Shown: positions 801 through 18,645 of the stretch, piece by piece
Numbering within the stretch: position 1 is the stretch's first letter
How the letters are laid out: each line of letters opens with the position of its first letter
Assembly: GCA_944383925.1 (NCBI GenBank)
Contig: CALWRM010000010.1
Span: 1 to 47,750, forward strand
Reading direction: 5' to 3'
DNA length: 47,750 nt
Origin: an uncultured Clostridia bacterium
GTDB taxonomy: Bacteria; Bacillota; Clostridia; Christensenellales; UBA1750
Position numbers and translations under genes: made by a program
The notes under the pieces: generated by a model
Told to the model about the DNA's origin: nothing
The model's database searches: none
Seen by the model: only the letters and a program-made list of their open reading frames with translations

Positions 801-850
801 ATCTGTAAGCGCAATAAAGCGCGAATATGGGGCGGAAGGGAGGAAACGCC

Positions 851-1498
851 TTGGACACGCACCCCATTTCGACACAAACGCTGCGCAGGTTGCCGGTATA
901 TCTCAGCTACCTGAAGCACATCCCCCAACGGGAGACGGCCACCATCTCCGCCACGGGGATCGCCGCAGCCCTCAACCTCAACGAGGTGCAGGTGCGCAAG
1001 GATCTATCCGCGGTCAGCAGCAGCGGCCGGCCGAAGATCGGCTATGCGGTACGGGACCTTATCCACGATATCGAGCAGTTCCTGGGTTATAACAACGCCG
1101 AGGACGCCGTGCTCGTGGGCGCGGGAAACCTGGGCAAGGCTCTGCTCTCCTACGAAAGCTTTAAGGACCATGGACTGAACATCGTGGCCGCCTTCGACGT
1201 GGATCGAGAGGTCGTCGGTGGCAAAATCAGCGGAAAGCCCGTGTACGAAACTTCTCAAATCGAACACATCTGTAGGCGGTTGCGCATCCGCATGGGCATC
1301 TTGACCGTGCCCTCCGTGGCCGCGCAGGAGGCCTGCGACGCCTTGGTGCGCGGCGGCGTGCGAGCCATTTGGAACTTCACCCCCACCCATTTGGACGTGC
1401 CCGATAGCGTGCTGGTGCTCAACGAAAACCTCGTTTCTTCCATCGCCGTGCTATCCAAAAGGCTTAACGAGCGCCTGATGGAGGAAGAGGCCCTGTGA
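851..1498 (+). CDS. rex: Redox-sensing transcriptional repressor Rex (variant DNA-binding region)
   Basis: Rex is a cytoplasmic homodimer that binds DNA when NAD+ is high and releases it when NADH rises. The product is about 215 aa, normal for Rex. I chose TTG at 851 because AGGGAGGAAA sits 6-7 bases upstream; the in-frame ATG at 827 lacks a ribosome binding site and gives an atypical N-terminus. The winged-helix domain contains VQVRKDLS (about residues 46-53). The following wing reads SSSGRPKIGY rather than the canonical FGEFGKRGVGY-like sequence. The NAD Rossmann motif is GAGNLGKAL (about 90-98), with AFDVD after the second strand. It is the first gene of the redox locus and probably controls itself and the downstream genes through the repeats at 732-761 and 1855-1864. 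Family is secure; targets are inferred. Confidence 0.93.
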   Translation: MDTHPISTQTLRRLPVYLSYLKHIPQRETATISATGIAAALNLNEVQVRKDLSAVSSSGRPKIGYAVRDLIHDIEQFLGYNNAEDAVLVGAGNLGKALLSYESFKDHGLNIVAAFDVDREVVGGKISGKPVYETSQIEHICRRLRIRMGILTVPSVAAQEACDALVRGGVRAIWNFTPTHLDVPDSVLVLNENLVSSIAVLSKRLNERLMEEEAL

Positions 1499-1978: not shown

Positions 1979-2929
1979 ATGGGTAAGAAGGTTACCGTCA
2001 TCGGCGCCGGAAACGTGGGCTCCAGCATCGCATTTTTGCTCGCCATCAAGAACGTGGCAACGGAGGTTGTCATCATCGACATCAACGAGGAGAAGGCCAT
2101 GGGCGAGGCCATGGACATCCGCCAGGGCATGCCGCTTTGCGACACCCCGGTTTCCATCTATGCCGGCAGCTACGCCGACGCCAAGGACTCCGACGTGGTC
2201 ATCATCACCTCCGGCGTGCCGCGCAAGCCCGGCCAGACCCGCATCGATCTGGCGCAGACCAACGTCAACGTCATCAAGTCCATCGCGCCTTCCATCGTTC
2301 CCTACGCTCCCAACGCCTTCTACCTGTTGGTGAGCAACCCCGTGGACATCCTCACCTACGTCTTCCAGAAGGTCAGCGGCATTCCCGAGGAGAGGATCAT
2401 GGGCTCCGGCACCCTGCTGGACACCGCCAGGCTGCGCGCCCGCATCGCCGAGTACCTCAACGTCAGCCAGAAGAACATCCATGCCTACGTGCTGGGCGAG
2501 CACGGCGACAGCTCCTTCATTCCCTGGTCCGTGGCCCAGGTATCCACCATCCCCCTGTCGGATTATAAGGAGCTGATCCACTACAAGAACCAGAACTTCA
2601 TGGAGCTGGATTACGACGAGGTGGAGAAGTACATGCGCACCTCCGGCAGCAAGATCATCTCCCGCAAGGGCGCCACCTATTATGCCATCGCCATCTCCGT
2701 TTGCGAGATTTGCGAGAGCCTATTTGGCAGCGTGGACGCCGTGACCACGGTCTCCACCATGATGCACCCCGAATATGCCATGGAAGACGTGTGCCTGATC
2801 ATCCCCCCCCTGGTGCGCCCCAAGGGCGTGGCCGGCAAGACCACCCCCAATCTCCCCGCCGAGGAGGAGGCCAAGCTGCTCAACAGCGCCAACGCCCTGA
2901 AGAAGGTCATCGCGGAGCTGGACATCTAG
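1979..2929 (+). CDS. mdh: LDH-fold malate dehydrogenase (NAD-dependent)
   Basis: The 316-aa protein belongs to the lactate/malate dehydrogenase family. It has NAD motif GAGNVG (9-14), an acidic residue ending strand 2 (D34, favouring NAD), catalytic D148 and R151 in LLDTARLR, and H175 in GEHGDS. The scaffold (GSGTLLDTARLR, KGATYY) is L-lactate-dehydrogenase-like. However, the substrate loop reads SGVPRKPGQTRIDL, with Arg82 where lactate dehydrogenases carry Gln. That swap is the established determinant of oxaloacetate/malate specificity. Position before fumarase and fumarate reductase subunits supports oxaloacetate reduction to malate. AGGAGGGG precedes the ATG. Family is certain; malate rather than lactate is likely but not proven. 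Confidence 0.85.
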   Translation: MGKKVTVIGAGNVGSSIAFLLAIKNVATEVVIIDINEEKAMGEAMDIRQGMPLCDTPVSIYAGSYADAKDSDVVIITSGVPRKPGQTRIDLAQTNVNVIKSIAPSIVPYAPNAFYLLVSNPVDILTYVFQKVSGIPEERIMGSGTLLDTARLRARIAEYLNVSQKNIHAYVLGEHGDSSFIPWSVAQVSTIPLSDYKELIHYKNQNFMELDYDEVEKYMRTSGSKIISRKGATYYAIAISVCEICESLFGSVDAVTTVSTMMHPEYAMEDVCLIIPPLVRPKGVAGKTTPNLPAEEEAKLLNSANALKKVIAELDI

Positions 2930-2965: not shown

Positions 2966-4336
2966 ATGGAGTATCGCATCGAACGGGATTCCATGGGCGA
3001 AATGCGCGTGCCCGCCGACAAATATTGGGGCGCCCAAACCCAGCGCAGCTATCAGAACTTTGAAATCGGCGTGGAGACCATGCCCAAGGAGATCATCAAC
3101 GCCTTTGGCATCTTGAAAAAGGCGGCCGCCCTCACCAACCATACCCTCAAGCCCGAAAAGATGGACGACAGGCGCTGTCAGGCCATTTGCGCGGCGGCGG
3201 ACGAGGTGATCGCGGGCAAGCTGAACGACCACTTTCCCCTGGTCGTCTGGCAGACGGGCAGCGGCACCCAGTCCAACATGAACGCCAACGAGGTGATTGC
3301 CGGCCGCGGCAACGAAATCCTGGGCGAAAAGCTGCTGCACCCCAACGACCATGTGAACATGTCCCAAAGCTCCAACGACACCTTCCCCACGGCCATGCAC
3401 ATCGCGGCCACCCTGCAAATCGAGGACCGGCTGCTGCCCGCCATCGACGAGCTACGGGAAACCTTCCTGCGCCTGGAGAAGGAGAACGAGGGCATCGTCA
3501 AGACCGGCCGCACCCACCTGCAGGACGCCACCCCCATCCGCTTCTCCCAGGAGATCAGCGGCTGGCGCAACATGCTGGAAAAGACCAGGGCCCAGATCGT
3601 GGCCTCCCTGGATGGGCTGCATGAGCTGGCCCTGGGCGGCACGGCCGTCGGCACCGGCCTCAACTGCCCCAAGGGCTTTGCGGAGCTGGTGGCGGAAAAC
3701 GTGAGCAAGCTCACCGGCAAGGCCTTTAGGACCGCGGAAAACAAGTTCCACGCCCTGACCTCCAAGGACGACCTGGTCTTCGCCCACGGCGCCCTCAAGG
3801 CCTTGGCCGCGAACCTGATGAAGATCGCCAACGACGTGCGCTGGCTGGCCAGCGGCCCCAGGGACGGCCTGGGCGAGATCTTCATCCCCGAGAACGAGCC
3901 CGGCTCCTCCATCATGCCCGGCAAGGTGAACCCCACCCAGTGCGAGTCCATGACCATGGTGGCCGTGCAGGTGATCGCCAACGACGTGGCCGTGGGCTTC
4001 GCCGCCTCCCAGGGCAACTTCGAACTCAACGTGTTCATGCCGGTGCTGATCTACAACTTCCTGCAGTCCGTGCGCCTGCTGTCGGATTCCCTGCGCTCCT
4101 TCAATAAGAACTGCGCCTCCGGCATCCGCGCCAACCGCGAGAAGATGCGCCACAACCTCTACAATTCCCTCATGCTGGTGACGGCGCTCAACCCCTATAT
4201 CGGCTATGACAACGCCGCCAAGACGGCAAAAAAGGCCTACAAGGAAAACATCTCGCTCAAGGAGGCCTGCGTGGAGCTGGGCTTCCTGACAGCCGAAAGG
4301 TTCGACGAGGTGTTCAAGCCCGAGGAGATGGCCTAA
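2966..4336 (+). CDS. fumC: Class II fumarate hydratase
   Basis: The enzyme interconverts malate and fumarate without an Fe-S cluster. Length (456 aa) matches FumC. The N-terminus [20 protein letters not shown] is typical. The superfamily signature [15 protein letters not shown] (around residues 313-327) has the fumarase form; aspartase would read PAKVNPV. The [20 protein letters not shown] stretch is also FumC-like. It lies 36 bases after mdh and 24 bases before the chosen hdrB start, so it is almost certainly in the same operon. It supplies fumarate to the reductase at the end of the cluster. Confidence 0.95.
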
Positions 4337-4360
4337 GGCACAAGGGAGATGAAACAAACG

Positions 4361-5152
4361 ATGAATTACAGCTACTACCCTGGCTGCACCCTGAAGACCA
4401 AGGCCAAGGAGCTGGACCGCTACGCGCGCAGCTCCGCTGAAAAGCTGGGCCTGCACCTGGAGGAGCTGGAGGATTGGCAATGCTGCGGCGCGGTTTATCC
4501 CCAAGCCGAGGACGAAATCGCCACCAAGCTCTCCGCCGTGCGCGCCTTGGCCCAGGCCAAGGAAAAGGGCGGCAAGCTGGTGACCCTCTGCTCCGCCTGC
4601 CACCACGTGATCAAGCGCGTCAACCTGGATATGCAAAACAACGAGTACATCCGCACGCGCGTCAACAACTACATCGCGCCCGACGCTCCCTATGCGGGCG
4701 AAACGCAGGTGCTGCATTACCTGGAGCTGCTGCGCGACGAGCTTGGCTTCGAGCAGCTGAAAAAGAGCGTCGTCAACCCCCTCAAGGGCCGCAAGATCGC
4801 CGCCTATTACGGCTGCATGCTGCTCAGGCCTGCCGAGGAGATGGGCATGGACGATCCGGAAAACCCCAAGATCCTGGAGGATTTCCTTCGCGCCCTTGGC
4901 GCGGAGCCCGTGCTCTACCCCTACCGCAACGAGTGCTGCGGCGGCTATATCGCCCTGGAGGACAAGGGCCAGGCCAGACAAAACGTGGACAAGATCCTGC
5001 ATTCGGCCAGCCTGGCCGGAGCGGAGGCGGTCATCACCGCCTGCCCGCTGTGCCTGTACAACCTGGCCCAAAACGCCGGGAAGGAACGCTTGCCCGTGCT
5101 CTACTTCACCGAGCTTCTGGCCGAAGCCCTCGGGGTAAAGGAGGAGGCGTAA
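4361..5152 (+). CDS. hdrB: HdrB-like subunit, two CCG cysteine-rich domains
   Basis: This is a heterodisulfide reductase subunit B homologue, cytoplasmic. In methanogens HdrB carries two noncubane [4Fe-4S] clusters that cleave a disulfide. Both CCG motifs are complete: C9, C41-C42, C77, C80 and C152, C192-C193, C228, C231. I chose the ATG at 4361, giving MNYSYYPGC, the usual HdrB start. The earlier ATG at 4349 abuts the AAGGGAG ribosome binding site and is too close. Operon neighbours are fumC and hdrC. HdrB is fused to FrdB in the TfrB subunit of methanogen thiol:fumarate reductase, a precedent for electron exchange with the FrdB-like protein encoded downstream. The physiological partner here is inferred. 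Confidence 0.9.
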   Translation: MNYSYYPGCTLKTKAKELDRYARSSAEKLGLHLEELEDWQCCGAVYPQAEDEIATKLSAVRALAQAKEKGGKLVTLCSACHHVIKRVNLDMQNNEYIRTRVNNYIAPDAPYAGETQVLHYLELLRDELGFEQLKKSVVNPLKGRKIAAYYGCMLLRPAEEMGMDDPENPKILEDFLRALGAEPVLYPYRNECCGGYIALEDKGQARQNVDKILHSASLAGAEAVITACPLCLYNLAQNAGKERLPVLYFTELLAEALGVKEEA

Positions 5153-5155
5153 ACC

Positions 5156-5551
5156 ATGCTGCATGAAAACGAACGCGACCTGCGCGAGACGATCCTGCGC
5201 ATCAGCGCGGTGGACGTACGCAAATGCATGAAGTGCGGCAAGTGCTCGGGCAGCTGTCCTGCCTACGAACAGATGGAGTACCATCCCCACCAGTTCGTGG
5301 CCATGGTGGACAACGGCGACATCCAGGCCTTGCTGGACTCGGACGCCTCCTTTAAGTGCTTGACCTGCTATGCCTGCACCGAGCGCTGCCCCAGGGACGT
5401 TAGGCCCGCAAGGCTGGTGGAGGCCGTTCGCCTGCTCAAGATTCGCAAGCAGGGCCAGAACCACCTCAAGCCCGACGCCATCCCCGCAAAGCTGGAGGCC
5501 GAGTTGCCCCAGCAGGCCATCGTGGCCGCCCTTCGCAAATACAGCAAATAA
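5156..5551 (+). CDS. hdrC: HdrC-like [4Fe-4S] electron-transfer subunit
   Basis: This 131-aa protein carries two [4Fe-4S] cubane motifs: C24-C27-C30-C34 (CMKCGKCSGSCP) and C68-C71-C74-C78 (CLTCYACTERCP). HdrC wires electrons from HdrA to HdrB. The gene starts 3 bases after the hdrB stop, with GGAGG inside the end of hdrB. Length is somewhat short compared with methanogen HdrC but normal for bacterial versions. No membrane segment is present, so the complex is soluble. Confidence 0.9.
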   Translation: MLHENERDLRETILRISAVDVRKCMKCGKCSGSCPAYEQMEYHPHQFVAMVDNGDIQALLDSDASFKCLTCYACTERCPRDVRPARLVEAVRLLKIRKQGQNHLKPDAIPAKLEAELPQQAIVAALRKYSK

Positions 5552-5566
5552 GGAGATGAAGAGAGT

Positions 5567-7552
5567 ATGCAGAGAATAGGCGTCTTTGTTTGCTGGTGCG
5601 GAAGCAACATCGCGGGCCCGGTGGATGTGGAACGGGTGGCCGAGGCCATGAAGTCCGTGCCCGGCGTGGTCCATTCCACCACCTACCAATACATGTGCTC
5701 CGAGGTGGGACAAAGCCGCATCATGGAGGCCATCAAGGAGCATCAGCTCACGGGCGTCGTGGTATGCTCCTGTTCCCCCCGCATGCATGAAAATACCTTC
5801 CGCAAGACCGCCCAGCGCGCTGGGCTGAATCCCTACATGGTGGAGATCGCCAACATCCGCGAGCAGTGCTCCTGGATCCATAAGGATAAGGAAGTGGGCA
5901 CCCAGAAGGCCATCGTGCTGGCCAAGGCCGCCGTGGCCAAGGTGATGCTCAACACCCCCCTGCAGGCGGGCACCAGCCCCGTGATCAAGCGCGCCTTGGT
6001 CATCGGCGGCGGCATCGCCGGCATCCAGACCGCGCTGGACATCGCCGACGCCGGCTACGAGGTGGACATCGTGGAAAAGTCCCCCACCATCGGCGGCCGC
6101 ATGGCACAGCTGGACAAGACCTTCCCCACCCTGGACTGCTCGGCCTGTATCCTCACCCCCAAGATGGTGGACGCGGCCCAGAACGAGAAGATCGACATCA
6201 TCAGCTACGCCCAGGTGGAAAAGGTCTCCGGCTTCGTGGGCAACTTCACCGTTACCATCCGCAAGAAGGCCCGCTTTGTCGATGAGCTCAAGTGCACGGG
6301 CTGCGGCGCCTGCATGGAAAAATGCCCCTCCAAGAAGGGCAAGAACGAGTTCAACATGGGCCTGAACAACCGCACCGCCATCTACATCCCCTTCGCCCAG
6401 GCCATCCCCAACGTGGCCGTGATCGACCCCGAGCAGTGCCTCAAGCTCAAGACCGGCAAGTGCGGCCTGTGCGAGCGCGTCTGCTCCGCCGGGGCCATCA
6501 ACTACAAGCAGGAGGACGAGGTGTTCGAGCGCCAGTACGGCGCCATCGTGGCGGCCACCGGCTTTAAGCCCATCGATCTGGACGCCTTCGACGAATACGG
6601 CTACTCCCAGAGCAAGGACGTGGTCACCAGCCTGGAGTTTGAGCGCATCATGAACGCGGCCGGCCCCACCGGCGGCCAGCTGGTGCGGCCCTCCGACGGC
6701 AAGCATCCCCACGAGATCGTCTTCATCCAGTGCGTGGGTTCCCGCGATACCTCCGGCTGCGGCAAGCCCTATTGCTCCAAGATCTGCTGCATGTACACGG
6801 CCAAGCACGCCATGCTGGTGCGCGACAAGTATCCGGACGTGAACGTGCACGTGTTCTACATCGACGTGCGCACCCCCGGCAAGAACTTCGACGAGTTCTA
6901 CCGCCGGGCCGTGGAGCAGTACGGCGTGGATTACATCAAGGGCATGGTCGGCAAGGTCTTCCCCGAAGGGGACAAGCTGATCGTGCAGGGCAGCGACCTG
7001 ATCAACGGCAAGCAGCTGGCCCTTCAGGCGGACATGGTGGTGCTGGCCGCCGCCATCGAGCCGGATCCCAGCGCCCGCAAGCTGGCCACCATGCTCACCG
7101 CTTCCATGGATACCAACGACTTCTTCACCGAGGCCCATCCCAAGCTGCGCCCCGTGGAAAGCCCCACGGCCGGCGTGTTCCTCTCCGGCGTTTGCCAGGG
7201 CCCCAAGGACATTCCCGAGACCGTGGCCCAGGCCGGCGCCGCGGCGTCCAAGGTCATCGGCCTGCTGGCCAAGGACCACCTGGTCACCAACCCCTGCGTG
7301 GCCCAGAGCAACGAGCTGCTGTGCAACGGCTGCTCCCAGTGCGAGCGGGTTTGCCCCTACGGCGCCATCAGCTATGTGGAGAAGGAGATCCGCGGTCCCG
7401 GCGTGCGCGAGGTGCGCCGCGTGGCCCAGGTCAATCCGGCCGTCTGCCAGGGCTGCGGCGCCTGCACGGTGACCTGCCCCTCCGGCGCGATGGACCTTCA
7501 AGGCTTTAGCAACCTGCAGATCATGGCGGAGGTGGATGCGATATGCAAGTAA
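5567..7552 (+). CDS. hdrA: HdrA-like FAD/iron-sulfur subunit, electron-bifurcation core
   Basis: HdrA (661 aa) binds the FAD that splits electron pairs in Hdr complexes. The N-terminus has VFVCWCGSNIAG, then a CSCSPRMHE segment, a Rossmann FAD motif GGGIAGIQ (about 147-154) and the family stretch TLDCSACILTPKM. Four ferredoxin-type motifs follow: CTGCGACMEKCP, CGLCERVC, CNGCSQCERVCP and CQGCGACTVTCP, the last two forming a C-terminal ferredoxin domain. AAGGAGATGA lies upstream. Its 3' end overlaps the MvhD-like gene by 10 bases, implying translational coupling. Family is certain; bifurcation is the known role of HdrA, not something shown by sequence alone. Confidence 0.93.
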   Translation: MQRIGVFVCWCGSNIAGPVDVERVAEAMKSVPGVVHSTTYQYMCSEVGQSRIMEAIKEHQLTGVVVCSCSPRMHENTFRKTAQRAGLNPYMVEIANIREQCSWIHKDKEVGTQKAIVLAKAAVAKVMLNTPLQAGTSPVIKRALVIGGGIAGIQTALDIADAGYEVDIVEKSPTIGGRMAQLDKTFPTLDCSACILTPKMVDAAQNEKIDIISYAQVEKVSGFVGNFTVTIRKKARFVDELKCTGCGACMEKCPSKKGKNEFNMGLNNRTAIYIPFAQAIPNVAVIDPEQCLKLKTGKCGLCERVCSAGAINYKQEDEVFERQYGAIVAATGFKPIDLDAFDEYGYSQSKDVVTSLEFERIMNAAGPTGGQLVRPSDGKHPHEIVFIQCVGSRDTSGCGKPYCSKICCMYTAKHAMLVRDKYPDVNVHVFYIDVRTPGKNFDEFYRRAVEQYGVDYIKGMVGKVFPEGDKLIVQGSDLINGKQLALQADMVVLAAAIEPDPSARKLATMLTASMDTNDFFTEAHPKLRPVESPTAGVFLSGVCQGPKDIPETVAQAGAAASKVIGLLAKDHLVTNPCVAQSNELLCNGCSQCERVCPYGAISYVEKEIRGPGVREVRRVAQVNPAVCQGCGACTVTCPSGAMDLQGFSNLQIMAEVDAICK

Positions 7553-7989
7553 GGCAGGATTGGAAGCCCAAGATCGTGGCCTTTTGCTGCAACTGGTGCA
7601 GCTACGCGGGCGCGGATCTGGCGGGCAGCAGCCGCCGGTCCTATCCGGCGGATGTGAAGATCATCCGCGTGCCCTGCTCCTGCAGGGTCAACCCCCTGTT
7701 CATCCTGCGCGCCTTCCAAAGGGGCGCCGACGGCGTCATCATCTGCGGCTGCCATCCGGGCGATTGCCACTACACCTCGGGCAACTATTACGCCAGGCGG
7801 CGCATGACGCTGCTGTTTAAGATGCTCGAATACCTGGGCATCGAAAAGGGCCGCACCCGCGTGGAGTGGGTGTCCGCCGCCGAAGGCGCAAAGTTTTCCA
7901 GCGTGATGAACGACTTTGTGCAAACCGTCACCGCCTTGGGCGAGAATGTGAAGCTGGAGGATTTAAGATGCAAGGAACCGCTCAACTGA
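7543..7989 (+). CDS. flxD: MvhD/FlxD-like [2Fe-2S] connector subunit
   Basis: This 148-aa protein belongs to the methyl-viologen-reducing hydrogenase delta family, which links an electron-input module to HdrA. Cysteine-rich motifs include FCCNWCSYAGAD near the N-terminus, PCSCRVNP, and CGCHPGDCHY with NYYARRR after it, all typical. Start overlaps the end of hdrA by 10 bases; GGAGGTGG lies about 7 bases upstream. No hydrogenase or formate dehydrogenase gene is present, and an NADH-type flavoprotein follows instead. The module is therefore FlxD rather than MvhD proper. Confidence 0.9.
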   Translation: MQVRQDWKPKIVAFCCNWCSYAGADLAGSSRRSYPADVKIIRVPCSCRVNPLFILRAFQRGADGVIICGCHPGDCHYTSGNYYARRRMTLLFKMLEYLGIEKGRTRVEWVSAAEGAKFSSVMNDFVQTVTALGENVKLEDLRCKEPLN

Positions 7990-8882
7990 TCCTGGAACGC
8001 GCCCGCGAGCTGATGCAAAGCGGTCAAATCCAGCGCGTGCTCGGCTGGGAAAAGGGCGAGTTCGAGCACGACCCCACCCCCGCTTTCTTCGAAAGCGAGG
8101 AGGAGCTTCAAAACTTCTGCTACAACGACTATTGCGGCGCAAACCTGAGCAAGTACCTGATCGCCGCCTCCAAGCTGGAGGGCAAGACGCTGGTCTGCAT
8201 CAAGCCCTGCGACAGCTACAGCCTCAACCAGCTGATCACCGAGCACCGCGTCAACCGCGAAAAGGTCTTCGTGCTGGCCGTGCCCTGTCCCGGCATGCTG
8301 GACCCGGTCAAGACCGAGGGAAAGGACCTAAGCCAGGGGGAGCGCAAGGACTACCTGCTGGATAAGTGCCTTTGCTGCAAGGGAGCGGAGCATAAGATCG
8401 CCGACGAGACCATTGAGGGGCCCAGCCTGGACCTGGCGCCGGAGGACCGCTTCGCCCAGGTGCGCGAGCTGGAGGCCCTCAGCCCCCAGGAGCGCTTCGA
8501 CTTCTGGCGCGGCGAGCTGTCCCGCTGCATCCGCTGCAACGCCTGCCGCAACGTTTGCCCGGCCTGCTCCTGCGTCAAGTGCGTGTTCGATAACCCCAAC
8601 TCGGGCGTCTCCTCCAAGGCCAGCGCGGACGACTTTGAGGAAAACATGTTCCACATCATCCGCGCCTTCCACGTGGCCGGCCGCTGCACCGATTGCGGCG
8701 AGTGCAGCCGCGTCTGCCCCCAGAGGATTCCCCTGCACCTGCTCAACCGCAAGTTCATCGCCGACATCGACGAGCTGTACGGCGAGTACCAGGCCGGCGA
8801 GGAGGCCGAACAGCGCTCCCCGTTGGTCAACTACCAAACCACGGACAAAGAGCCCAGCGACGCGCTGAAGGGGAGGGGATAG
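7968..8882 (+). CDS. flxC: FlxC-like iron-sulfur subunit with two [4Fe-4S] motifs
   Basis: A 304-aa protein with an N-terminal domain containing CIKPCDSYSLNQLITEHRV and DKCLCCKGAEH. A dicluster ferredoxin region follows (CIRCNACRNVCP with a further CSCVKC, then CTDCGECSRVCP). Such proteins accompany NADH-oxidising FlxA in Flx-Hdr complexes. I chose ATG at 7968, which overlaps the flxD end by 22 bases and has GGAGG 7 bases upstream; an upstream in-frame start would extend far into flxD. The C versus B label is by gene order only, since both are ferredoxin-like and the order here is D-C-B-A. Confidence 0.8.
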   Translation: MQGTAQLILERARELMQSGQIQRVLGWEKGEFEHDPTPAFFESEEELQNFCYNDYCGANLSKYLIAASKLEGKTLVCIKPCDSYSLNQLITEHRVNREKVFVLAVPCPGMLDPVKTEGKDLSQGERKDYLLDKCLCCKGAEHKIADETIEGPSLDLAPEDRFAQVRELEALSPQERFDFWRGELSRCIRCNACRNVCPACSCVKCVFDNPNSGVSSKASADDFEENMFHIIRAFHVAGRCTDCGECSRVCPQRIPLHLLNRKFIADIDELYGEYQAGEEAEQRSPLVNYQTTDKEPSDALKGRG

Positions 8883-8884
8883 GC

Positions 8885-9922
8885 TTGAAAAAGATCGCTG
8901 AAAACAGGCTGCCGGAGCTGTACCAGGCCCTGAGCGCGGAGCGCAAGCTCTACCTGCCCCTGGAGGAAGGCGGCGTGGTGGGCTATGGGCTGTATTCGCC
9001 GGAAAAGAAGACGGCCCTCACCGCCCCCTCCACCGTCAAGAGCCCCAAGGAGCTGTTCTTTCCCCAGGTGGAGGGCGTGGTCAACTTCCAGATGCAGGGC
9101 AAGAACATCGACATCCTGCCCATCGAAATGCCCAAGGAGGACTTCGTGGTCATGGGCGTGCGCGCCTGCGACGTGCGCAGCTTTGACGTGCTGGACCGCG
9201 TCTTCCTCTCCGACCCGGTGGACGGCTACTACGCCGCCCGGCGCGAGCATGGCACCATCGTTTCCCTGGCCTGCGACCAGCCGCAAAACAGCTGCTTCTG
9301 CGAGGCCTTCGGCATCGACGCCGCCGCGCCTGCGGGCGACGTGCGCTGTTTTATTCGGGAGGGCGTGCTGTATTGGCAAGCCCTGACCGATAAGGGCCAG
9401 GCGCTGACCGACTCCCTGTTCGGCCTGCTGGAGGAGGCCGGCCCTGCGGGCCAGGAGCAGCAGGAAGCCTTCACGGCGGAAACCAAGGAAAAACTGCAAG
9501 CCCTGCCCTACCATGGGCTGGACCTGTCCGCCTTTACCCCCGACCGGCTGGGCGAGCTGTTCCACGATCCCAAGTGGAAAAAGCTGTCCCAGGCCTGCTT
9601 GGGCTGCGGAAGCTGCACCTTCGTTTGCCCCACCTGCCAGTGCTACGACGTGCGCGACTTCGACACCGGCCACGGCATCCAGCGCTATCGCTGCTGGGAC
9701 TCCTGCATGTATTCCGACTTTACCATGATGGCCCACGGAACCCCCCGCCCCACGCAGCTGGAAAAGTTCCGCCAGAGGTTCATGCACAAGCTGGTCTACT
9801 TCCCCTCCAACAACGAGGGCATGTATTCCTGCGTGGGCTGCGGCCGCTGCGTGCGCAAATGCCCCATCCATATGCACATCGTCAAGGTCATCAAGGCGCT
9901 AGGAGGGAAGAAAGATGAGTGA
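8885..9922 (+). CDS. flxB: FlxB-like 4Fe-4S dicluster protein (AsrA/sulfhydrogenase-beta family)
   Basis: The product is about 345 aa. It has the family segment MGVRACDVRSFDVLDRVF in the N-terminal half and two C-terminal [4Fe-4S] motifs (CLGCGSCTFVCP and CVGCGRCVRKCP) separated by a cysteine-bearing region CQCYDVRD...RCWDSCMYSDF. This matches AsrA/HyhB-type electron-transfer subunits. I chose TTG at 8885, two bases after the flxC stop, because GGGAGGGG lies 6-10 bases upstream. Its end overlaps flxA by 8 bases. It likely relays electrons between FlxA flavin and FlxC/FlxD. Confidence 0.8.
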   Translation: MKKIAENRLPELYQALSAERKLYLPLEEGGVVGYGLYSPEKKTALTAPSTVKSPKELFFPQVEGVVNFQMQGKNIDILPIEMPKEDFVVMGVRACDVRSFDVLDRVFLSDPVDGYYAARREHGTIVSLACDQPQNSCFCEAFGIDAAAPAGDVRCFIREGVLYWQALTDKGQALTDSLFGLLEEAGPAGQEQQEAFTAETKEKLQALPYHGLDLSAFTPDRLGELFHDPKWKKLSQACLGCGSCTFVCPTCQCYDVRDFDTGHGIQRYRCWDSCMYSDFTMMAHGTPRPTQLEKFRQRFMHKLVYFPSNNEGMYSCVGCGRCVRKCPIHMHIVKVIKALGGKKDE

Positions 9923-10739
9923 GGCCCTAATCCCGATGCTCGGCGTCGTCACGGCCATCCGCCAGGATACGCCGGATGTGAAAACCTTCCGCGTGGAGGC
10001 CTTGGGCGGCGGCAAGTGCTTCGAGCACATGCCCGGCCAGTGCGCCATGCTGTCCATCCCCGGCGTGGGCGAGGCCATGTTCTCCATCACCTCCTCGCCC
10101 ACCGTGAAGGAATATATGGAGTTTTCCATCAAGAAGTGCGGCTGCCTGACCGACTGGCTGCACCGCATGGACGTGGGCCAGCAGATCCTCATCCGCGGCC
10201 CCTACGGCAACGGCTTCCCCGTGGAGGGAGAGCTCAAGGGCCAGAACCTGCTCTTCATCGCCGGCGGCATCGGCCTGGCGCCCCTGCGCTCGGTGATCAA
10301 CTATTGCAGGCATTACCGCCAGAACTATGGCAACATCCAGATCCTCTACGGCTCCAGATCCAAGGACGACCTGGTGGATTACCAGGAGATCCTGGACGAG
10401 TGGATGCAGGACGAGGGCATCAAGGTGTATCTGACCATAGACCGCGCCCAGGAGGGCTGGGACGGCCACGTGGGCTTCGTGCCCTCCTATGTGGAGGAGC
10501 TGGGCTTCGATCCCCAGGGCAAGGTGCTGGTCTGCGGCCCGCCCATCATGATCAAGTTCACGCTCCAGTCGCTGGAGAAGCTGGGCTTCACCAAGCAGCA
10601 GGTCTTCACCACCATGGAGCTTAGGATGAAGTGCGGCGTGGGCAAGTGCGGCAGGTGCAACATCGGCGACAAATACGTTTGCAAGGACGGCCCCGTGTTC
10701 CGCTTTGACGAGCTGAGCGAGCTGCCGGACGAGTATTGA
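9915..10739 (+). CDS. flxA: FlxA-like NAD(P)H:FAD/[2Fe-2S] oxidoreductase
   Basis: A 274-aa ferredoxin-reductase-family protein, related to AsrB and PyrK-type subunits. The FAD domain contains FSITSSP (about 56-62). The NAD-binding half starts with IAGGIGLAPLRS (115-126) and includes VCGPPIMIK. The C-terminal [2Fe-2S] ligands are C240, C245, C248 and C256. It would oxidise NADH and feed the Hdr module; NADH over NADPH is a family-based guess. The ATG has AGGAGGGAAGAAAG upstream within the end of flxB. It is the last of the Flx genes, 16 bases before frdB. Confidence 0.88.
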   Translation: MSEALIPMLGVVTAIRQDTPDVKTFRVEALGGGKCFEHMPGQCAMLSIPGVGEAMFSITSSPTVKEYMEFSIKKCGCLTDWLHRMDVGQQILIRGPYGNGFPVEGELKGQNLLFIAGGIGLAPLRSVINYCRHYRQNYGNIQILYGSRSKDDLVDYQEILDEWMQDEGIKVYLTIDRAQEGWDGHVGFVPSYVEELGFDPQGKVLVCGPPIMIKFTLQSLEKLGFTKQQVFTTMELRMKCGVGKCGRCNIGDKYVCKDGPVFRFDELSELPDEY

Positions 10740-10755
10740 TCGGAGGATAGAGACT

Positions 10756-11430
10756 ATGGCAGAAATGGTAAACGTGTTTTTGATGGGCAAGCGTTACGAG
10801 GTTCCCTCTGGTCTTACCATCATGGGCGCGATGGAATACGCGGGCTATAAGCTGGTGCGCGGCTGCGGCTGCCGCAACGGCTTTTGCGGGGCCTGCGCCA
10901 CGGTGTACCGCATCAAGGGCGACCGGGAGCTGAAAACCGCCCTGGCCTGCCAAACCACCGTGCAGGACAACATGTATGTGGCCACGCTCCCCTTCTTCCC
11001 CCTGAACAAGGAGCTGTACGACATCGGCAAGCTCCGCCCGGACGAGCAGGTGATGATGCAGCTCTATCCGGAGATCTACGCCTGCATCGGCTGCAACGCC
11101 TGCACCAAGGCCTGCCCCCAGGAGCTGAACGTGATGCAGTACATCGCCTATGCCCAGCGCGGCGACTTCAAGAAGTGCGCCGAGCTGTCCTTCGATTGCG
11201 TGATGTGCGGCATCTGCTCTTCCCGCTGCCCGGCGGGTATCTCCCATCCCCAGGTAGCCATGCTGGCCAGGCGCCTGAACGGCAAGTACATCGCGCCCGA
11301 GGCCCAGCACCTGACCAAGCGCGTGAAGGAAATCGAGGACGGCGAGTGCGCCAAGGCCCTGGAGGCCATCATGAACAAGCCCGTGGAGGAGCTCAAGGAG
11401 CTCTATAACCACCGCGAAATCGAAGAATAA
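10756..11430 (+). CDS. frdB: FrdB-like iron-sulfur subunit of a soluble fumarate reductase
   Basis: A 224-aa SdhB/FrdB-family protein. The N-terminal [2Fe-2S] domain has C39, C44, C47 and C65 (GCRNGFCGAC). The C-terminal part has two complete [4Fe-4S] motifs, C110-C113-C116-C120 and C148-C151-C154-C158. Quinone-linked SdhB/FrdB proteins have a [3Fe-4S] site with one missing ligand in the last motif; here all four cysteines are present. No membrane anchor genes follow. There is no fused CCG domain, unlike methanogen TfrB, but HdrB is encoded separately in the same operon. It probably passes electrons from the Hdr module to FrdA. Confidence 0.85.
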   Translation: MAEMVNVFLMGKRYEVPSGLTIMGAMEYAGYKLVRGCGCRNGFCGACATVYRIKGDRELKTALACQTTVQDNMYVATLPFFPLNKELYDIGKLRPDEQVMMQLYPEIYACIGCNACTKACPQELNVMQYIAYAQRGDFKKCAELSFDCVMCGICSSRCPAGISHPQVAMLARRLNGKYIAPEAQHLTKRVKEIEDGECAKALEAIMNKPVEELKELYNHREIEE

Positions 11431-11446: not shown

Positions 11447-13042
11447 ATGTTCACACAGGAAATGCTCGATTCCATGAAAAAGGTGGAGGCGGCTCGCGCG
11501 CATAACATTGCCACCGAACCCAGGCGCATGACCGCCGAGGAAAAGGAAGAACTGCTCAAGCACTACCACCCCGACTATAAGGAAGAAGGCTTTACCCACC
11601 TGAGCATGGGCCCCAACGCCGGCGACAAGGTGCCCGAGGAGCTCTGCGAGCTGTTGCAGGGCAAGAGCCGCGTGGAGGACCTGGAACTGGATCTGACCAA
11701 GGCCGACTATGAGGCCGACGTGCTGATCATCGGCGGCGGCGGAGCCGGTTCTTCCGCGGCCATCGAGGCGGACGAGGCCGGCTGCAAGGCCATGATCGTC
11801 ACCAAGCTGCGCATCGGCGACGCCAACACCATGATGGCCGAGGGCGGCATCCAGGCCGCCGACAAGGAGAACGACTCCCCGGCCCAGCATTACCTGGACG
11901 CCATGGGCGGCGGCCACTATGCCAACGTGCCCGAGCTGCTCAAGAAGCTGGTCACCGAGGGCCCCGGCGCCGTGCAATGGCTCAACCGCCTGGGCGTGGA
12001 GTTCGATAAGGCCGAGGACGGCACCATGATCACCACCCATGGCGGCGGAACCTCCCGCAAGCGCATGCATGCCGCCGCGGACTACTCCGGCGCCGAGATC
12101 ATGCGCACCCTGCGCGACGAGGTGCTCAACCGCCGCATCGGCGGGGGGGACTTCACCTCCGCCATCGAGCTGCTGCTGGACGAGCAGGGCAGGGCCACCG
12201 GCGCCGTGCTGCAAAACATGGAGACCGGCGAGATCCTCATCGCCAGGGCCAAGACCGTCATCATCGCCACCGGCGGCGCGGGCAGGCTCCATTACCAGGG
12301 CTTCCCCACCTCCAACCATTATGGCGCCACCGCCGACGGCCTGGTGCTGGGCTACCGCGCGGGCGCGAAGCTGCTCTACGCCGATACCCTGCAATACCAC
12401 CCCACCGGCGTGGCCTATCCCCAGCAGATCTTCGGCGCGCTGGTGACCGAAAAGGTGCGCTCCATGGGCGCTAAGCTCATCAACGCCAACGGCGAGGCCT
12501 TCATGCATCCCCTGGAGACCAGGGACGTGTCCGCCGCCTCCATCATCCGCGAGTGCTCCGACCGGGGCAACGGCGTGGACACCGGCGCCGGCAAGGCCGT
12601 TTGGCTGGATACCCCCATGATCGACCAGATCCATGGCGAGGGCACGCTGGAAAAGCGCCTGCCCGGCATGCTGCGCATGTACTCCAAGTACGGCATCGAC
12701 ATCCGCAAGACCCCCATCCTGGTCTATCCCACCCTGCACTACCAGAACGGCGGCCTGCAGATCACCCCGGACGGACAGACCTGCGTGGAGAACCTCTTTG
12801 TGGCCGGCGAGGCCGTCGGCGGCATCCATGGCCGCAACCGCCTCATGGGCAACTCCCTGCTGGATGTGATCGTGTTCGGCCGCAACGCCGGCCAGCACGC
12901 CTCCGCCAAGGCCAAGGAGGTTACCCTGGGCAAGGCCACGCTGGACCATGTGCAGCGCTTCGCCAAGGAGCGCGAGGAGAAGGGCATCCACACCCAGACC
13001 CTTTCGCCCAAGCTGCTGCCCGACTACACCCGCAAGGTGTAA
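11447..13042 (+). CDS. frdA: FrdA-like fumarate reductase flavoprotein, non-covalent FAD type
   Basis: A 531-aa SdhA/FrdA/NadB-family flavoprotein that should reduce fumarate to succinate in the cytoplasm. The FAD motif is IIGGGGAGSSAA (94-105). Active-site residues equivalent to E. coli FrdA are conserved: H318 in QYHPTG, R359 in TRDV, H431 in LHYQNGG and R465 in RNRLMGNS. The site of the covalent FAD histidine reads ANTMMAEGGI, with N127 in place of His, so FAD should be non-covalent. About 90 residues precede the FAD domain, and the usual long C-terminal helical domain is almost absent. GGGGGGAG precedes the ATG. L-aspartate oxidase is an alternative, but the adjacent FrdB-like gene argues against it. 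Confidence 0.85.
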   Translation: MFTQEMLDSMKKVEAARAHNIATEPRRMTAEEKEELLKHYHPDYKEEGFTHLSMGPNAGDKVPEELCELLQGKSRVEDLELDLTKADYEADVLIIGGGGAGSSAAIEADEAGCKAMIVTKLRIGDANTMMAEGGIQAADKENDSPAQHYLDAMGGGHYANVPELLKKLVTEGPGAVQWLNRLGVEFDKAEDGTMITTHGGGTSRKRMHAAADYSGAEIMRTLRDEVLNRRIGGGDFTSAIELLLDEQGRATGAVLQNMETGEILIARAKTVIIATGGAGRLHYQGFPTSNHYGATADGLVLGYRAGAKLLYADTLQYHPTGVAYPQQIFGALVTEKVRSMGAKLINANGEAFMHPLETRDVSAASIIRECSDRGNGVDTGAGKAVWLDTPMIDQIHGEGTLEKRLPGMLRMYSKYGIDIRKTPILVYPTLHYQNGGLQITPDGQTCVENLFVAGEAVGGIHGRNRLMGNSLLDVIVFGRNAGQHASAKAKEVTLGKATLDHVQRFAKEREEKGIHTQTLSPKLLPDYTRKV

Positions 13043-13068: not shown

Positions 13069-13099
13069 AAGCCCCCGCGCCTATGGCGCGGGGGCTTTG
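13069..13099 (+). terminator. Intrinsic terminator after frdA
   Basis: GCCCCCGCGCC pairs with GGCGCGGGGGC across TAT; the T-run is short (TTT). It closes the long redox operon. Confidence 0.8.
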
Positions 13100-13592: not shown

Positions 13593-14720
13593 TCAAAGCA
13601 GGGCGCTAAAATCAGCCATGGCTTCCGAAATCCTCAGCTGCTGGGGACAAACCGCCTCGCAGCTGCGGCAGCCGAGGCACGCGCTGGGTCGCTTTTCCGC
13701 AGGAATGGCGGAAAGCGCCATCGGGGCGATAAAGCCGCCGCCGGAGAAACGATGCTCATTGTAAAGGGCGAGCAGATGGGGAATGTCCAACCCCTGGGGA
13801 CAGTGGCTGGCGCAGTACCGGCAGGCAGTGCAAGCGAGCGCCTTGGAGTCGGTCATCTTTCGGCCCAGCGACACAAGGCCGTCCCACTCTTGCTCTGTCA
13901 GGGAGTCGCTTGATGCAAAGGTGGCCAGATTGTCCTCCAATTGCTCCAGGTTGGACATGCCGGATAGAATAACCACCACATTGGGAATGCGCTGAAGAAA
14001 GCGGAAGGCCCAGGCGGGGAGGGAACGCTGTGGAGCCAGGGCGTGGAGCCTTGCAGCCTCCTCTTCATGCAGGCGGACCAGCCGTCCGCCGCGAAGAGGT
14101 TCCATCACCCAGACGGGGATGTTGTATTGGGCCAAGAGCCCGGCCTTCTCCTTTCCGCCCTGAAACGTCCAATCGATGTAGTTTAGCTGGAGCTGGCAAA
14201 ACTCCATGTGCTCTGCGTATGCCTCCAAAAAACGCTTCAGCACCGGCATGGAGCCATGGCAGGAAAAACCGAGGTGGCGAATGCGGCCGTTTCTCTTTTG
14301 CTCCAACAAATAATCCAAAATACCATATTGGGGATCCAAATAGGCGTCGATGTTCAGCTCGCACACGTTGTGGAACAGATAAAAGTCAAAATAATCCACC
14401 CGGCACTTCTTCAGCTGTTCCTCGAAAATTTCTTCCACCTTGCCCATGTTGCGAAGGTCGTATCCGGGGAATTTGTCGGCCAGATAGAACTTTTCGCGGG
14501 GATAAGCGGACAGGGCCTTACCTATGGCCAACTCCGACTGTCCGGCATGATACCCCCAAGCGGTGTCGAAATAGTTAACGCCATGCTTTATGGCGCAGGC
14601 CACCATCTCCTCTACGGCGGGCTGATCCACAGCTCCGTCGTCTTCATTTATCACGGGCAGGCGCATGCAGCCCATGCCCAGGTTGGAAAGTTGCAGGCCT
14701 TGAAAGCTTTTGTAGTTCAT
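13593..14720 (-). CDS. Aldo/keto reductase with C-terminal [4Fe-4S] domain
   Basis: This 375-aa protein has the aldo/keto reductase barrel tetrad: D and Y in YFDTAWGYHAGQSE, K in LADKF, and H in YLFHNV. A C-terminal ferredoxin extension carries two motifs, CTACRYCASHCP and CLGCRSCEAVCP. Such proteins are common in anaerobic Clostridia; the substrate is unknown. AAGGAGCTGC precedes the ATG. It is the last gene of the minus-strand group running from the MerR regulator, 19 bases after the CMD gene. Confidence 0.9.
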   Translation of the reverse strand: MNYKSFQGLQLSNLGMGCMRLPVINEDDGAVDQPAVEEMVACAIKHGVNYFDTAWGYHAGQSELAIGKALSAYPREKFYLADKFPGYDLRNMGKVEEIFEEQLKKCRVDYFDFYLFHNVCELNIDAYLDPQYGILDYLLEQKRNGRIRHLGFSCHGSMPVLKRFLEAYAEHMEFCQLQLNYIDWTFQGGKEKAGLLAQYNIPVWVMEPLRGGRLVRLHEEEAARLHALAPQRSLPAWAFRFLQRIPNVVVILSGMSNLEQLEDNLATFASSDSLTEQEWDGLVSLGRKMTDSKALACTACRYCASHCPQGLDIPHLLALYNEHRFSGGGFIAPMALSAIPAEKRPSACLGCRSCEAVCPQQLRISEAMADFSALL

Positions 14721-14739
14721 AAAAGCAGCTCCTTATTGC

Positions 14740-15489
14740 TTATTTTGAAGCCTCGTTCACACAACGCAGGGCGTTGAGACTCCTGGGATAGCCGATGTAG
14801 GGCAGGCATTGGGAAACCACATCGATGAGGAAGGACCGATCGTTGCCAACATGAAAATTCCCTGCGGCATGGCTCACGAGCTGGGGTTCGCAGCCGCCTT
14901 GGGCCGCGAGAATGCAGAAGGTGATCAGTTCCCGCTGCCTGTAATTCAGCCCGCTTCGGGTATAATAGTCCCCGAAGCAGTTGCCGGATAGCCACCGATG
15001 GATATGCCGCGTTTCCTGTGGGCCGCTGTTCTGATACCCTCGCATCTGCTCGCCGAAGATGTCCACCTGGGCTTGGTTGCCAGCTTCTATGCGAGCGTCC
15101 GGCTCAATGGTTTGTTGAGAGGGCAGCGGCAGGGAAAGACCGCTGTCTGTCAACGCTTCGTTGAGGACCCTCAGAAAGGGCAGTATGCGCCCAAGCCCCA
15201 GATAGGCCGTTCCCTGATAGACCATTTCCTTGAGCATGACAGGCGTTACGCCGCTCTGTAGGGCCATGGGAACCATGGCCCGGAAGACCTCTAGACCTTG
15301 GCAGCCCAAAAGAGCGGATAAAATGGACAGCAGACGGGTCTTTTCGTCCAGCGTGCTTTCCCCAACCACCTCGTCAAATGCGAAGCTGGAAAACAGAGCG
15401 GAAAAGTCCGGGTCGCTCGACTCAAGACCGAAGGAAGGGCCGGCGAACGCTTGCTGGGAAAAGCCGGCCGCGCTTTTTCGAAATTCCAT
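14740..15489 (-). CDS. Carboxymuconolactone decarboxylase-family protein (two CMD repeats)
   Basis: The 249-aa product has two CMD-like helical repeats, one in the first half (LLSILSALLGCQGLEVFR region) and one in the second (RELITFCILAAQGGCEPQL region). The AhpD CXXC peroxidase pair is not visible, so classical alkylhydroperoxidase activity is doubtful. I chose the ATG at 15489, preceded by AGGAGG; a much longer upstream extension overlaps the preceding gene and is not credible. Its neighbours, a flavodoxin lipoprotein and an aldo/keto reductase, suggest a redox or detoxification role, but the substrate is unknown. Confidence 0.82.
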   Translation of the reverse strand: MEFRKSAAGFSQQAFAGPSFGLESSDPDFSALFSSFAFDEVVGESTLDEKTRLLSILSALLGCQGLEVFRAMVPMALQSGVTPVMLKEMVYQGTAYLGLGRILPFLRVLNEALTDSGLSLPLPSQQTIEPDARIEAGNQAQVDIFGEQMRGYQNSGPQETRHIHRWLSGNCFGDYYTRSGLNYRQRELITFCILAAQGGCEPQLVSHAAGNFHVGNDRSFLIDVVSQCLPYIGYPRSLNALRCVNEASK

Positions 15490-15526
15490 GTTTTTGCCTC
15501 CTATTGCGCAATGCGCGTTGTGCCGT

Positions 15527-16582: not shown

Positions 16583-16950
16583 TTTTCGATTCCTCCCGTC
16601 CTGCTTTGTGCCTTTTGAAGCTCGCGGCGCAGAAAGTCCAGGCGTTGAAGCTGGCGCTCCTTAAAATGTATCTCGTCCAGAGCAGCGTTCCGCTTTTCCT
16701 CCAGCATCCGGAGCCGCTGGCGTTCCGAGTGGGGCTGCTCCAGCAGCAGCCGCATGTAGGTTTCTACCTCACGGACGGTAAAACCCAGGTCGTGGAGCGT
16801 CATAATGGTGCTCAACCGGTCCAGATCGGCGTCATCGTACTGCCAGGCTCCCATGACCTCCTTCACCACCCCGCACAAGCCCCAGCGTTCGTATTCGTTC
16901 AGAATGTGCAAGGGAATTTGGTAACGTTCGCTAGCTTCTTGTTTGGTCAT
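16579..16950 (-). CDS. MerR-family transcriptional regulator
   Basis: A 123-aa protein with a MerR-type N-terminal helix-turn-helix (KQEASERYQIPLHILNEYER) and a coiled-coil dimerisation helix at about 75-115. The short C-terminus has no metal-binding cysteines, so it is probably not a metal sensor. AAGGAGG precedes the ATG. It heads the minus-strand group and is translationally coupled to the flavodoxin lipoprotein, so it probably regulates that group. The inducer is unknown. Confidence 0.85.
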   Translation of the reverse strand: MTKQEASERYQIPLHILNEYERWGLCGVVKEVMGAWQYDDADLDRLSTIMTLHDLGFTVREVETYMRLLLEQPHSERQRLRMLEEKRNAALDEIHFKERQLQRLDFLRRELQKAQSRTGGIEN

Positions 16951-16966
16951 AGCAAACCTCCTTCAT

Positions 16967-16999
16967 AAAAAACGCAGGCGCCGCTTTTCGCACGCCTGC
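16967..16999 (-). terminator. Intrinsic terminator between lysR and merR genes
   Basis: On the minus strand GCAGGCG pairs with CGCCTGC and is followed by GTTTTTT. It most likely ends the LysR transcript and insulates the MerR group. Confidence 0.75.
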
Positions 17000-17032
17000 A
17001 TTGTAAGACCGTCGGGGAAATATGTCTAATGC

Positions 17033-17920: not shown

Positions 17921-18158
17921 CCGCGCACCTCCTTTTTGCCATCCTAGCATAGCCGCTGTTGGATAACAAGATAAAAATGCCCAATATGAATATTTTAGGA
18001 TAGAAAATGAGCATTGTACATTTTTGAACCATGGATTTACAATTGGAGATGGGAAAAGGCCCAACAGGCCTTTTCGGAGAAAAGCCAAGCCCTCCTGCGC
18101 GCAGCGCCCCAGCGGAAGGACGCGCAGGAGGATGTCTGAATTTAAGGAGGAAATGCAC
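17921..18158. promoter_or_regulatory. Divergent control region with 11-bp leader hairpin
   Basis: An AT-rich part (17940-18030) between the two genes carries the palindrome AATAT-GA-ATATT (17983-17994), a possible LysR site. A minus-strand -10 like TATGCT lies at 17946-17951. Nearer the flavodoxin gene, CCTCCTGCGCG (18091-18101) and CGCGCAGGAGG (18121-18131) form a perfect 11-bp stem with a 19-base loop, ending 12 bases before the ribosome binding site. Function unknown. Confidence 0.5.
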
Positions 18159-18635: not shown

Positions 18636-18645
18636 AGGAGACCAT

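What the first reader, a model, noticed from the sequence alone, without database searches (positions are those of the whole stretch)
11447..13042. FrdA homologue without the covalent-FAD histidine, with a 90-residue N-terminal extension and short C-terminus
Catalytic residues H318, R359, H431 and R465 are kept, but the FAD attachment position reads ANT (N127). The FAD domain starts near residue 90 rather than near the N-terminus, and the usual helical C-terminal domain is largely missing. Non-covalent FAD is known from L-aspartate oxidase and soluble fumarate reductases and disfavours succinate oxidation. This points to a one-way fumarate reductase. The extension could be a docking element for the Hdr module.
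Basis: partly seen in the sequence, partly recalled or inferred. Interest (0 to 1): 0.65.

Follow-up and report, generated by a model that had tools for sequence, protein, structure and literature searches.

The report
Fumarate reductase of a bifurcating operon
This gene makes the catalytic subunit of a soluble fumarate reductase that probably lets gut Clostridia turn fumarate into succinate while also recovering energy-rich electrons; this kind of operon was already proposed in one relative, and the subunit's extra N-terminal piece is not specific to its Hdr partner as first guessed.

Summary
The 531-aa ORF is a FrdA/SdhA homologue. Its FAD-attachment histidine is Asn127, the fumarate-site residues are kept, 88 residues precede the FAD domain, and only 42 residues follow it (187 in E. 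coli FrdA).

It closes a syntenic operon: malate dehydrogenase, fumarase, HdrB-C-A, MvhD, FlxC-B-A, FrdB, FrdA. The HdrB-to-FrdA order is intact in 60 of 60 related loci long enough to test. Best reading: the soluble, non-covalent-FAD fumarate site of a Flx-Hdr-Frd complex that oxidises NAD(P)H, reduces fumarate and probably ferredoxin. This operon type was already described in Pseudoclostridium thermosuccinogenes.

The one-way reading is plausible, by analogy to Wolinella MFR and from bifurcation energetics. The Asn alone does not prove it: two genomes carry His there inside the same operon.

Docking the extension on Hdr is not supported. All 130 family members have the extension, including four near-complete genomes with no detectable HdrA or HdrB, where it is no less conserved. 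It is more likely an intrinsic FrdA element, perhaps standing in for the lost C-terminal helical domain.

The parts
11447..13042 (+). frdA: flavoprotein (fumarate site) of soluble fumarate reductase, 531 aa
   Evidence: Pfam FAD_binding_2 E 2.3e-68; best NCBIfam TfrA 342 bits, below its 718-bit cut-off; orthologues 68-80% identical
11447..11713 (+). N-terminal extension, residues 1-89, helices 4-22 and 30-40 then beta/alpha elements to residue 70
   Evidence: AF2 block pLDDT 77-95 in the full-length model; R17, R27, L37, H41, P42, D43, G55 invariant in 130 members; no sequence or fold match
11825..11827 (+). codon AAC = Asn127 at the position of the FAD-linking histidine
   Evidence: alignment with EcFrdA/SdhA; codon position
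12398..12400 (+). His318, substrate-binding (EcFrdA His232 in mature numbering)
12521..12523 (+). Arg359, catalytic proton donor (EcFrdA Arg287; Fcc3 Arg402)
   Evidence: role from established knowledge of the family
12737..12739 (+). His431, substrate-binding (EcFrdA His355)
12839..12841 (+). Arg465, substrate-binding (EcFrdA Arg390)
12914..13039 (+). short C-terminal tail, residues 490-531; the helical domain of SdhA/FrdA/NadB is missing
10756..11430 (+). frdB: [2Fe-2S] plus two [4Fe-4S] binding motifs, 224 aa, no CCG domain
   Evidence: Pfam Fer2/Fer4; the 12 canonical ligand Cys at least 99% conserved in 77 operons
9915..10739 (+). flxA: NAD(P)H/FAD subunit (HydG/AsrB/DHODB type)
8885..9922 (+). 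flxB: Fe-S subunit (ShyB/AsrA type)
7968..8882 (+). flxC: Fe-S subunit
   Evidence: weak family matches, position in operon, conserved Cys
7543..7989 (+). flxD/mvhD
   Evidence: PF02662 FlpD E 1.1e-54
5567..7552 (+). hdrA: flavin protein, putative bifurcation site
   Evidence: NF040770 HdrA2 796 bits, below its cut-off
5156..5551 (+). hdrC
   Evidence: TIGR03290 E 1.9e-20
4349..5152 (+). hdrB with two complete non-cubane cluster motifs
   Evidence: 2 CCG domains; best NCBIfam MFR SdhE 151.7 bits; 10/10 Cys invariant in 61 operons
2966..4336 (+). fumC, class II fumarase
   Evidence: TIGR00979 725.9 bits, above cut-off
1979..2929 (+). malate dehydrogenase of the LDH-like type
   Evidence: LDH/MDH families; Arg82 at the LDH Gln102 specificity position in 47 of 47
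827..1498 (+). rex, NADH/NAD+ redox-sensing repressor (likely regulator)
   Evidence: NF003994 293 bits, cut-off 130
13070..13098 (+). intrinsic-terminator-like inverted repeat closing the operon
   Evidence: read in the sequence: GCCCCCGCGCC-TAT-GGCGCGGGGGC-TTT

Best explanation
FrdA is the fumarate-reducing end of a cytoplasmic Flx-Hdr-Frd complex. SHOWN by sequence: operon order, fumarate-site residues, Asn in place of the FAD-linking His, cluster motifs, no membrane anchor gene in the operon. INFERRED: FlxA takes a hydride from NAD(P)H; FlxBCD passes it to the HdrA flavin, which splits the pair. The low-potential electron goes to ferredoxin (re-oxidised by Rnf, whose RnfC is in the genome). 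The high-potential electron goes through HdrC and the two non-cubane clusters of HdrB to FrdB and then to a non-covalently bound FAD, which reduces fumarate from the neighbouring MDH and fumarase. FrdB has no CCG domain of its own, so direct HdrB-to-FrdB transfer is more likely than a thiol shuttle. The enzyme works one way in the cell because the coupled reaction is strongly exergonic (about -43 kJ/mol at standard potentials, taking ferredoxin at -450 mV) and because the FAD potential is lowered by the missing covalent bond. The N-terminal extension is an intrinsic folded part of this FrdA subfamily. It most likely stabilises the FAD domain or the FrdB interface in place of the lost C-terminal helical domain, and is not an Hdr dock.
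For: Full HdrB-C-A-MvhD-FlxC-B-A-FrdB-A order in 60 of 60 loci with enough upstream sequence; of 56 loci with about 10 kb upstream, MDH in 45 and fumarase in 45. Catalytic residues effectively invariant and N127 in 127 of 130. HdrB 10/10 cluster Cys and FrdB cluster Cys conserved. MDH Arg82 in 47 of 47. RnfC in the genome, 546.9 bits. The window FrdA is the only clear FrdA/SdhA/NadB relative found in its genome. Extension present in FrdA of G440 (a single-contig genome, 99% complete), G356, G131 and G127, none with an HdrA or HdrB hit; there its identity to the window's extension is 0.41-0.53, against 0.35-0.41 in equally distant Hdr-adjacent members. AF2: extension well predicted in the full-length context (block pLDDT 77-95), less so alone (pTM 0.37). 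Precedents: MFR, non-covalent FAD and no succinate oxidation; engineered loss of the covalent bond lowers the FAD potential by about 90-150 mV; P. thermosuccinogenes operon; tfrAB interspersed with flx-hdr in tubeworm symbionts.
Against: No biochemistry is available here. The Moorella MetFV-HdrABC-MvhD complex did not reduce ferredoxin when purified (reported in PMC8578096), so an Hdr operon does not prove bifurcation. His127 occurs in two genomes that keep the operon. Fully conserved non-cubane clusters in HdrB would also fit a thiol/disulfide partner. The role of the extension at FrdB is inferred only; no complex was modelled.
Confidence: 0.68

Rival explanations
1. The extension is a docking element for the Hdr module (HdrB/HdrC); in Hdr-free genomes it has been kept for another, newly acquired partner.
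For: In the window's neighbourhood and its 60 testable relatives FrdA is always encoded with Hdr. The extension is conserved and unlike any known fold.
Against: It is present and no less conserved in four near-complete genomes with no HdrA or HdrB hit, and in FrdBA loci not next to Hdr.
Confidence: 0.12
2. Thiol-linked fumarate reductase: HdrB reduces a disulfide and the thiol is re-oxidised by FrdAB, as in methanogen thiol:fumarate reductase.
For: HdrB keeps all ten non-cubane cluster Cys in 61 of 61; TfrA is the nearest named family. PMC7282089 describes Flx-Hdr as passing electrons to ferredoxin and thiols.
Against: FrdB is 224 aa with no CCG domain, whereas TfrB carries its thiol-oxidising HdrB-like half in the same chain (established knowledge). 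MFR SdhE, the best NCBIfam match to this HdrB, works as a subunit of its fumarate reductase.
Confidence: 0.18
3. A plain NADH-dependent (non-bifurcating) soluble fumarate reductase in which Hdr is only an electron wire.
For: Moorella MetFV-HdrABC-MvhD shows no ferredoxin reduction; Blautia luti was modelled with a simple NADH-dependent fumarate reductase (PMC12773636).
Against: The full Flx-HdrA set is kept in 60 of 60 operons although a wire would need far fewer subunits.
Confidence: 0.2
4. Reversible succinate dehydrogenase/fumarate reductase, or an enzyme for another enoate.
For: The substrate-loop Phe of FrdA/SdhA is Gly199, with His198 beside it, and HGANRLGGN reads HGRNRLMGN, so pocket details differ from FrdA. 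His127 in two genomes would allow covalent FAD.
Against: Fumarate-contacting residues are effectively invariant; MDH and fumarase lie directly upstream; the coupled reaction is strongly exergonic toward succinate.
Confidence: 0.08

Closest known systems
Flx-Hdr-linked fumarate reductase ('succinate operon') of Pseudoclostridium thermosuccinogenes (PMC7282089; Koendjbiharie and van Kranenburg, Preprints 2019)
   Same: Fumarase, then a Flx-Hdr complex (locus-tag range for seven genes), then a two-gene fumarate reductase; proposed to couple fumarate reduction to ferredoxin.
   Different: Its FrdA sequence could not be read here, so Asn127, the extension and the short C-terminus are untested there. 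The window operon also has MDH, and a rex gene upstream.
Methylmenaquinol:fumarate reductase SdhABE (MFR) of Wolinella succinogenes
   Same: FAD-linking His replaced (Ala86), non-covalent FAD, no succinate oxidation; SdhE is the best NCBIfam match to the window HdrB.
   Different: MFR is Tat-exported, membrane-linked and uses a quinol; the window system has Flx-Hdr, no anchor gene and an unrelated N-terminal extension. FrdA scores 214 against the MFR SdhA cut-off of 1100.
Thiol:fumarate reductase TfrAB of methanogens
   Same: Nearest named family for FrdA (NF004900, 342 bits); soluble.
   Different: Far below the 718-bit cut-off; FrdB has no fused CCG half.
Flavocytochrome c3 (soluble Shewanella fumarate reductase)
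   Same: Best VIA-align match (1e39, Z 31.5, rmsd 3.3, 385 residues); non-covalent FAD; extra N-terminal part and no C-terminal helical domain.
   Different: The N-terminal part is a tetrahaem domain there; here it has no haem motif and no fold match.
FlxABCD-HdrABC of Desulfovibrio vulgaris
   Same: Same Flx and Hdr subunit types.
   Different: No FrdAB in the operon as described; linked to ethanol metabolism (title cited).

Membership tests
SdhA/FrdA/NadB flavoprotein superfamily | FAD_binding_2 domain with fumarate/succinate site His, Arg, His, Arg and proton-relay Glu/Arg | tested here: met
Classical complex II (SQR/QFR) | histidine for covalent 8-alpha-histidyl FAD | tested here: not met
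   Asn127 aligned with EcFrdA/SdhA His45
Classical complex II (SQR/QFR) | C-terminal helical domain of the flavoprotein | tested here: not met
   42 residues after position 489 against 165-187
Classical complex II (SQR/QFR) | membrane anchor subunit(s) beside frdAB/sdhAB | tested here: not met
   none in the operon; neighbours annotated
Thiol:fumarate reductase (TfrAB) | TfrA score over curated cut-off | tested here: not met
   342 against 718 bits
Thiol:fumarate reductase (TfrAB) | TfrB with fused HdrB-like CCG half | tested here: not met
   FrdB 224 aa, no CCG; HdrB is a separate gene
L-aspartate oxidase (NadB) | score over cut-off; Glu121 | tested here: not met
   266 against 452.75 bits; Gly199 at Glu121
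Flx-Hdr-linked fumarate reductase operon (P. thermosuccinogenes type) | fumarase, Flx-Hdr genes and frdBA in one operon | tested here: met
   window and relatives against the description in PMC7282089
Flx-Hdr-linked fumarate reductase operon (P. thermosuccinogenes type) | same FrdA subfamily (extension, Asn127, short C-terminus) in the reference organism | not tested
Flavin-based electron-bifurcating enzymes | coupled ferredoxin reduction | not testable with these tools
   needs enzyme assay
Soluble flavocytochrome c fumarate reductases | haem domain | tested here: not met
   no CXXCH motif in the 531-aa sequence (read); no Pfam haem domain

The most novel reading that the evidence does not exclude
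A large, soluble, non-covalent-FAD FrdAB subfamily with a new N-terminal element acts as a plug-in fumarate acceptor. In gut Clostridia it is wired directly through a HdrB-FrdB contact to a bifurcating Flx-Hdr core, with no thiol intermediate; in other lineages it is wired to other donors. Its FAD attachment residue toggles between Asn and His by single-codon changes.
Probability: 0.4. Interest if true: 0.6.

Novelty: new member of a known kind. Interest (0 to 1): 0.4.

Why it matters
If the operon bifurcates, succinate formation in many gut and rumen Clostridia yields reduced ferredoxin and, through Rnf, extra ATP. This operon type is in Ruminococcus flavefaciens FD-1 and Blautia glucerasea, while a recent energy budget for the related Blautia luti assumed a plain NADH-dependent fumarate reductase. 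The natural Asn/His variation inside one operon type offers a clean test of what covalent FAD is for.

Tried and rejected
Filing under TfrA or NadB: scores are well below the curated cut-offs. Naming the N-terminal extension from families or folds: Pfam, NCBIfam and PDB sequence gave nothing significant; the extension predicted alone had no Foldseek hit below E 4 and no VIA-align row at Z 2 or more, which does not prove a new fold. Hdr docking of the extension: argued against. Rex operator near the operon: TTGTTAAnnnnTTAACAA with up to 3 mismatches, no match in the window; other Rex consensus forms were not tried. Calling 1979-2929 a lactate dehydrogenase, as the top NCBIfam hit says: rejected because Arg stands at the Gln102 specificity position in 47 of 47 relatives and fumarase follows it. 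Covalent flavin as a refuter of one-way catalysis: rejected because MFR A86H is covalent and still one-way. The 2019 preprint on the P. thermosuccinogenes enzyme is not in the library. A model of FrdA with FrdB and HdrB could not be made, as only single chains can be predicted.

Full report
OBSERVATION. The ORF 11447-13042 is real and its start is firm: no in-frame start lies between the upstream stop at 11372 and the ATG, and the start region is conserved. Pfam places an FAD_binding_2 domain at residues 91-471. Against E. coli FrdA, SdhA and NadB, Asn127 sits on His45/His45/Ser45, and H318, T334, E335, R338, R359, H431 and R465 sit on the known substrate and proton-relay residues. The C-terminus is 42 residues beyond position 489, against 187, 165 and 130 in the three references.

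HOW WIDESPREAD AND HOW CONSERVED. A sample of 398 genomes of the phylum shows a sharp gap: about 40 matches at 690 bits or more that start at residue 1-4, then a drop to 290 bits with matches starting near residue 86. So the extended FrdA is a distinct subfamily. Among 130 members Asn127 is found in 127 and His in 3; two of the three are the same genome, because L009 and L083 lie on contigs of the same length, 48,344 bases, with identical codons. The two His genomes lie in different parts of the tree, L063 beside an Asn sister (L056), so these look like separate changes inside the subfamily. L142-L145, among the nearest sequences outside it, have His. L063 and L083 both keep the operon around FrdA.

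THE OPERON. Upstream lie Rex, a malate dehydrogenase, fumarase, HdrB, HdrC, HdrA, MvhD/FlxD, FlxC, FlxB, FlxA and FrdB. In all 60 loci with at least 8 kb upstream, the nine genes HdrB to FrdA are present, in order and on one strand; of 56 loci with about 10 kb upstream, 45 show MDH, 45 fumarase and 41 both. MDH is named L-lactate dehydrogenase by the top family but has Arg at the malate-specificity position in 47 of 47. HdrB keeps all ten Cys of the two non-cubane cluster motifs in 61 of 61 and FrdB keeps its cluster ligands. No anchor gene is present. A strong hairpin followed by T's ends the operon at 13070-13098 (read).

MECHANISM. Shown: the parts, the order and the conserved residues. Inferred: NAD(P)H enters at FlxA, HdrA splits the pair, ferredoxin takes one electron, and HdrC-HdrB-FrdB-FAD carry the other to fumarate. 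With fumarate/succinate at +33 mV and NAD at -320 mV (PMC5861303) and ferredoxin taken as -450 mV, two NADH give about -43 kJ/mol, so the coupled reaction would not run backward in practice. RnfC is present to re-oxidise ferredoxin (546.9 bits), and [FeFe] hydrogenase pieces are present. HdrB best matches SdhE of MFR, a HdrB-like subunit of a fumarate reductase, and FrdB lacks the CCG half of TfrB; both favour direct transfer over a thiol shuttle. Caution: the Moorella MetFV-HdrABC-MvhD complex did not reduce ferredoxin when purified (PMC8578096).

ONE-WAY AND FAD. In Wolinella MFR the FAD histidine is Ala86, FAD is non-covalent and succinate is not oxidised; A86H makes it covalent but still gives no succinate oxidation (PMC2680327). 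The covalent bond raises the flavin potential, and engineered loss lowers it by about 90-150 mV (PMC9557727). So Asn127 makes one-way catalysis likely, but neither Asn nor a covalent bond alone settles it.

THE EXTENSION. In the full-length AF2 model residues 1-90 are well predicted (block means 77-95) with helices 4-22 and 30-40; alone, the same stretch falls to pTM 0.37, which suggests that its placement depends on the rest of FrdA (inference). It matches no family or solved fold. The overall model is closest to flavocytochrome c3 (Z 31.5) and then urocanate reductase and E. coli FrdA. The direct test of the docking idea is genomes with this FrdA but no Hdr: G440 (one contig, 99% complete), G356, G131 and G127 have no HdrA hit at 1e-20 and no HdrB hit at 1e-15, yet keep the invariant R17, R27, L37, H41, P42, D43, G55 and 0.41-0.53 identity in the extension, against 0.35-0.41 in equally distant Hdr-adjacent members. 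Other members have FrdBA next to pyruvate carboxylase, NapC/ResB-like genes or a small Fe-S protein instead of Hdr (names from reading the sequence). The extension therefore belongs to FrdA itself.

WHAT IS KNOWN. The operon type was described in Pseudoclostridium thermosuccinogenes, with ferredoxin coupling proposed (PMC7282089; the preprint it cites could not be read). tfrAB genes interspersed with flx-hdr are reported in tubeworm symbionts (PMC6315080). The finding is a new member of that kind. What seems undescribed in the papers I could search is the FrdA architecture, its occurrence without Hdr, and the Asn/His changes.

Noticed in passing
window 1571-1810 (+): 79-aa ORF between rex and MDH with CX4C and CX3C spacing (MKITVCIGSSC...CMGDC), looks like a thioredoxin-like [2Fe-2S] ferredoxin (NuoE/HydC type).
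   Followed up: partly
L063:7996-9591 and L083:10001-11590: FrdA with His (CAC) instead of Asn at the FAD position: natural candidates for covalent FAD.
   Followed up: partly
L136, L138, L141: Distant FrdBA of the same subfamily lie near NapC/ResB-like and fumarase-like genes, suggesting a different, membrane-linked electron donor (names from reading the sequence).
   Followed up: no
L133:653-1642, L134:4848-5855, L135:427-1413, L138:3178-3657, L141:11034-11516: A conserved small Fe-S protein (RLLSxG...CxxCGxCxDxC) accompanies FrdBA where Hdr is absent nearby; possible alternative electron-entry subunit.
   Followed up: no
L140 / G440: Single-contig genome without detectable HdrA/HdrB has frdBA beside a pyruvate-carboxylase-size gene (1144 aa); electron donor unknown.
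   Followed up: no
L052, L069, L099: Records labelled Treponema, Planctomycetaceae and Bacteroidaceae carry the same operon at 72-77% FrdA identity: probable mis-binned contigs or transfer.
   Followed up: no
window 13593-19683: Downstream cluster of two aldo/keto reductases (one with ferredoxin motifs), two flavodoxins, a carboxymuconolactone-decarboxylase-like protein and a LysR regulator.
   Followed up: no
L095 (Blautia glucerasea), L102 (Ruminococcus flavefaciens FD-1): Both carry the full HdrB-to-FrdA order, so bifurcating succinate formation can be tested in named, culturable organisms.
   Followed up: partly
L011 (G021): One otherwise intact orthologue is reported with an in-frame TAG; sequencing error or decay, not checked.
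   Followed up: no
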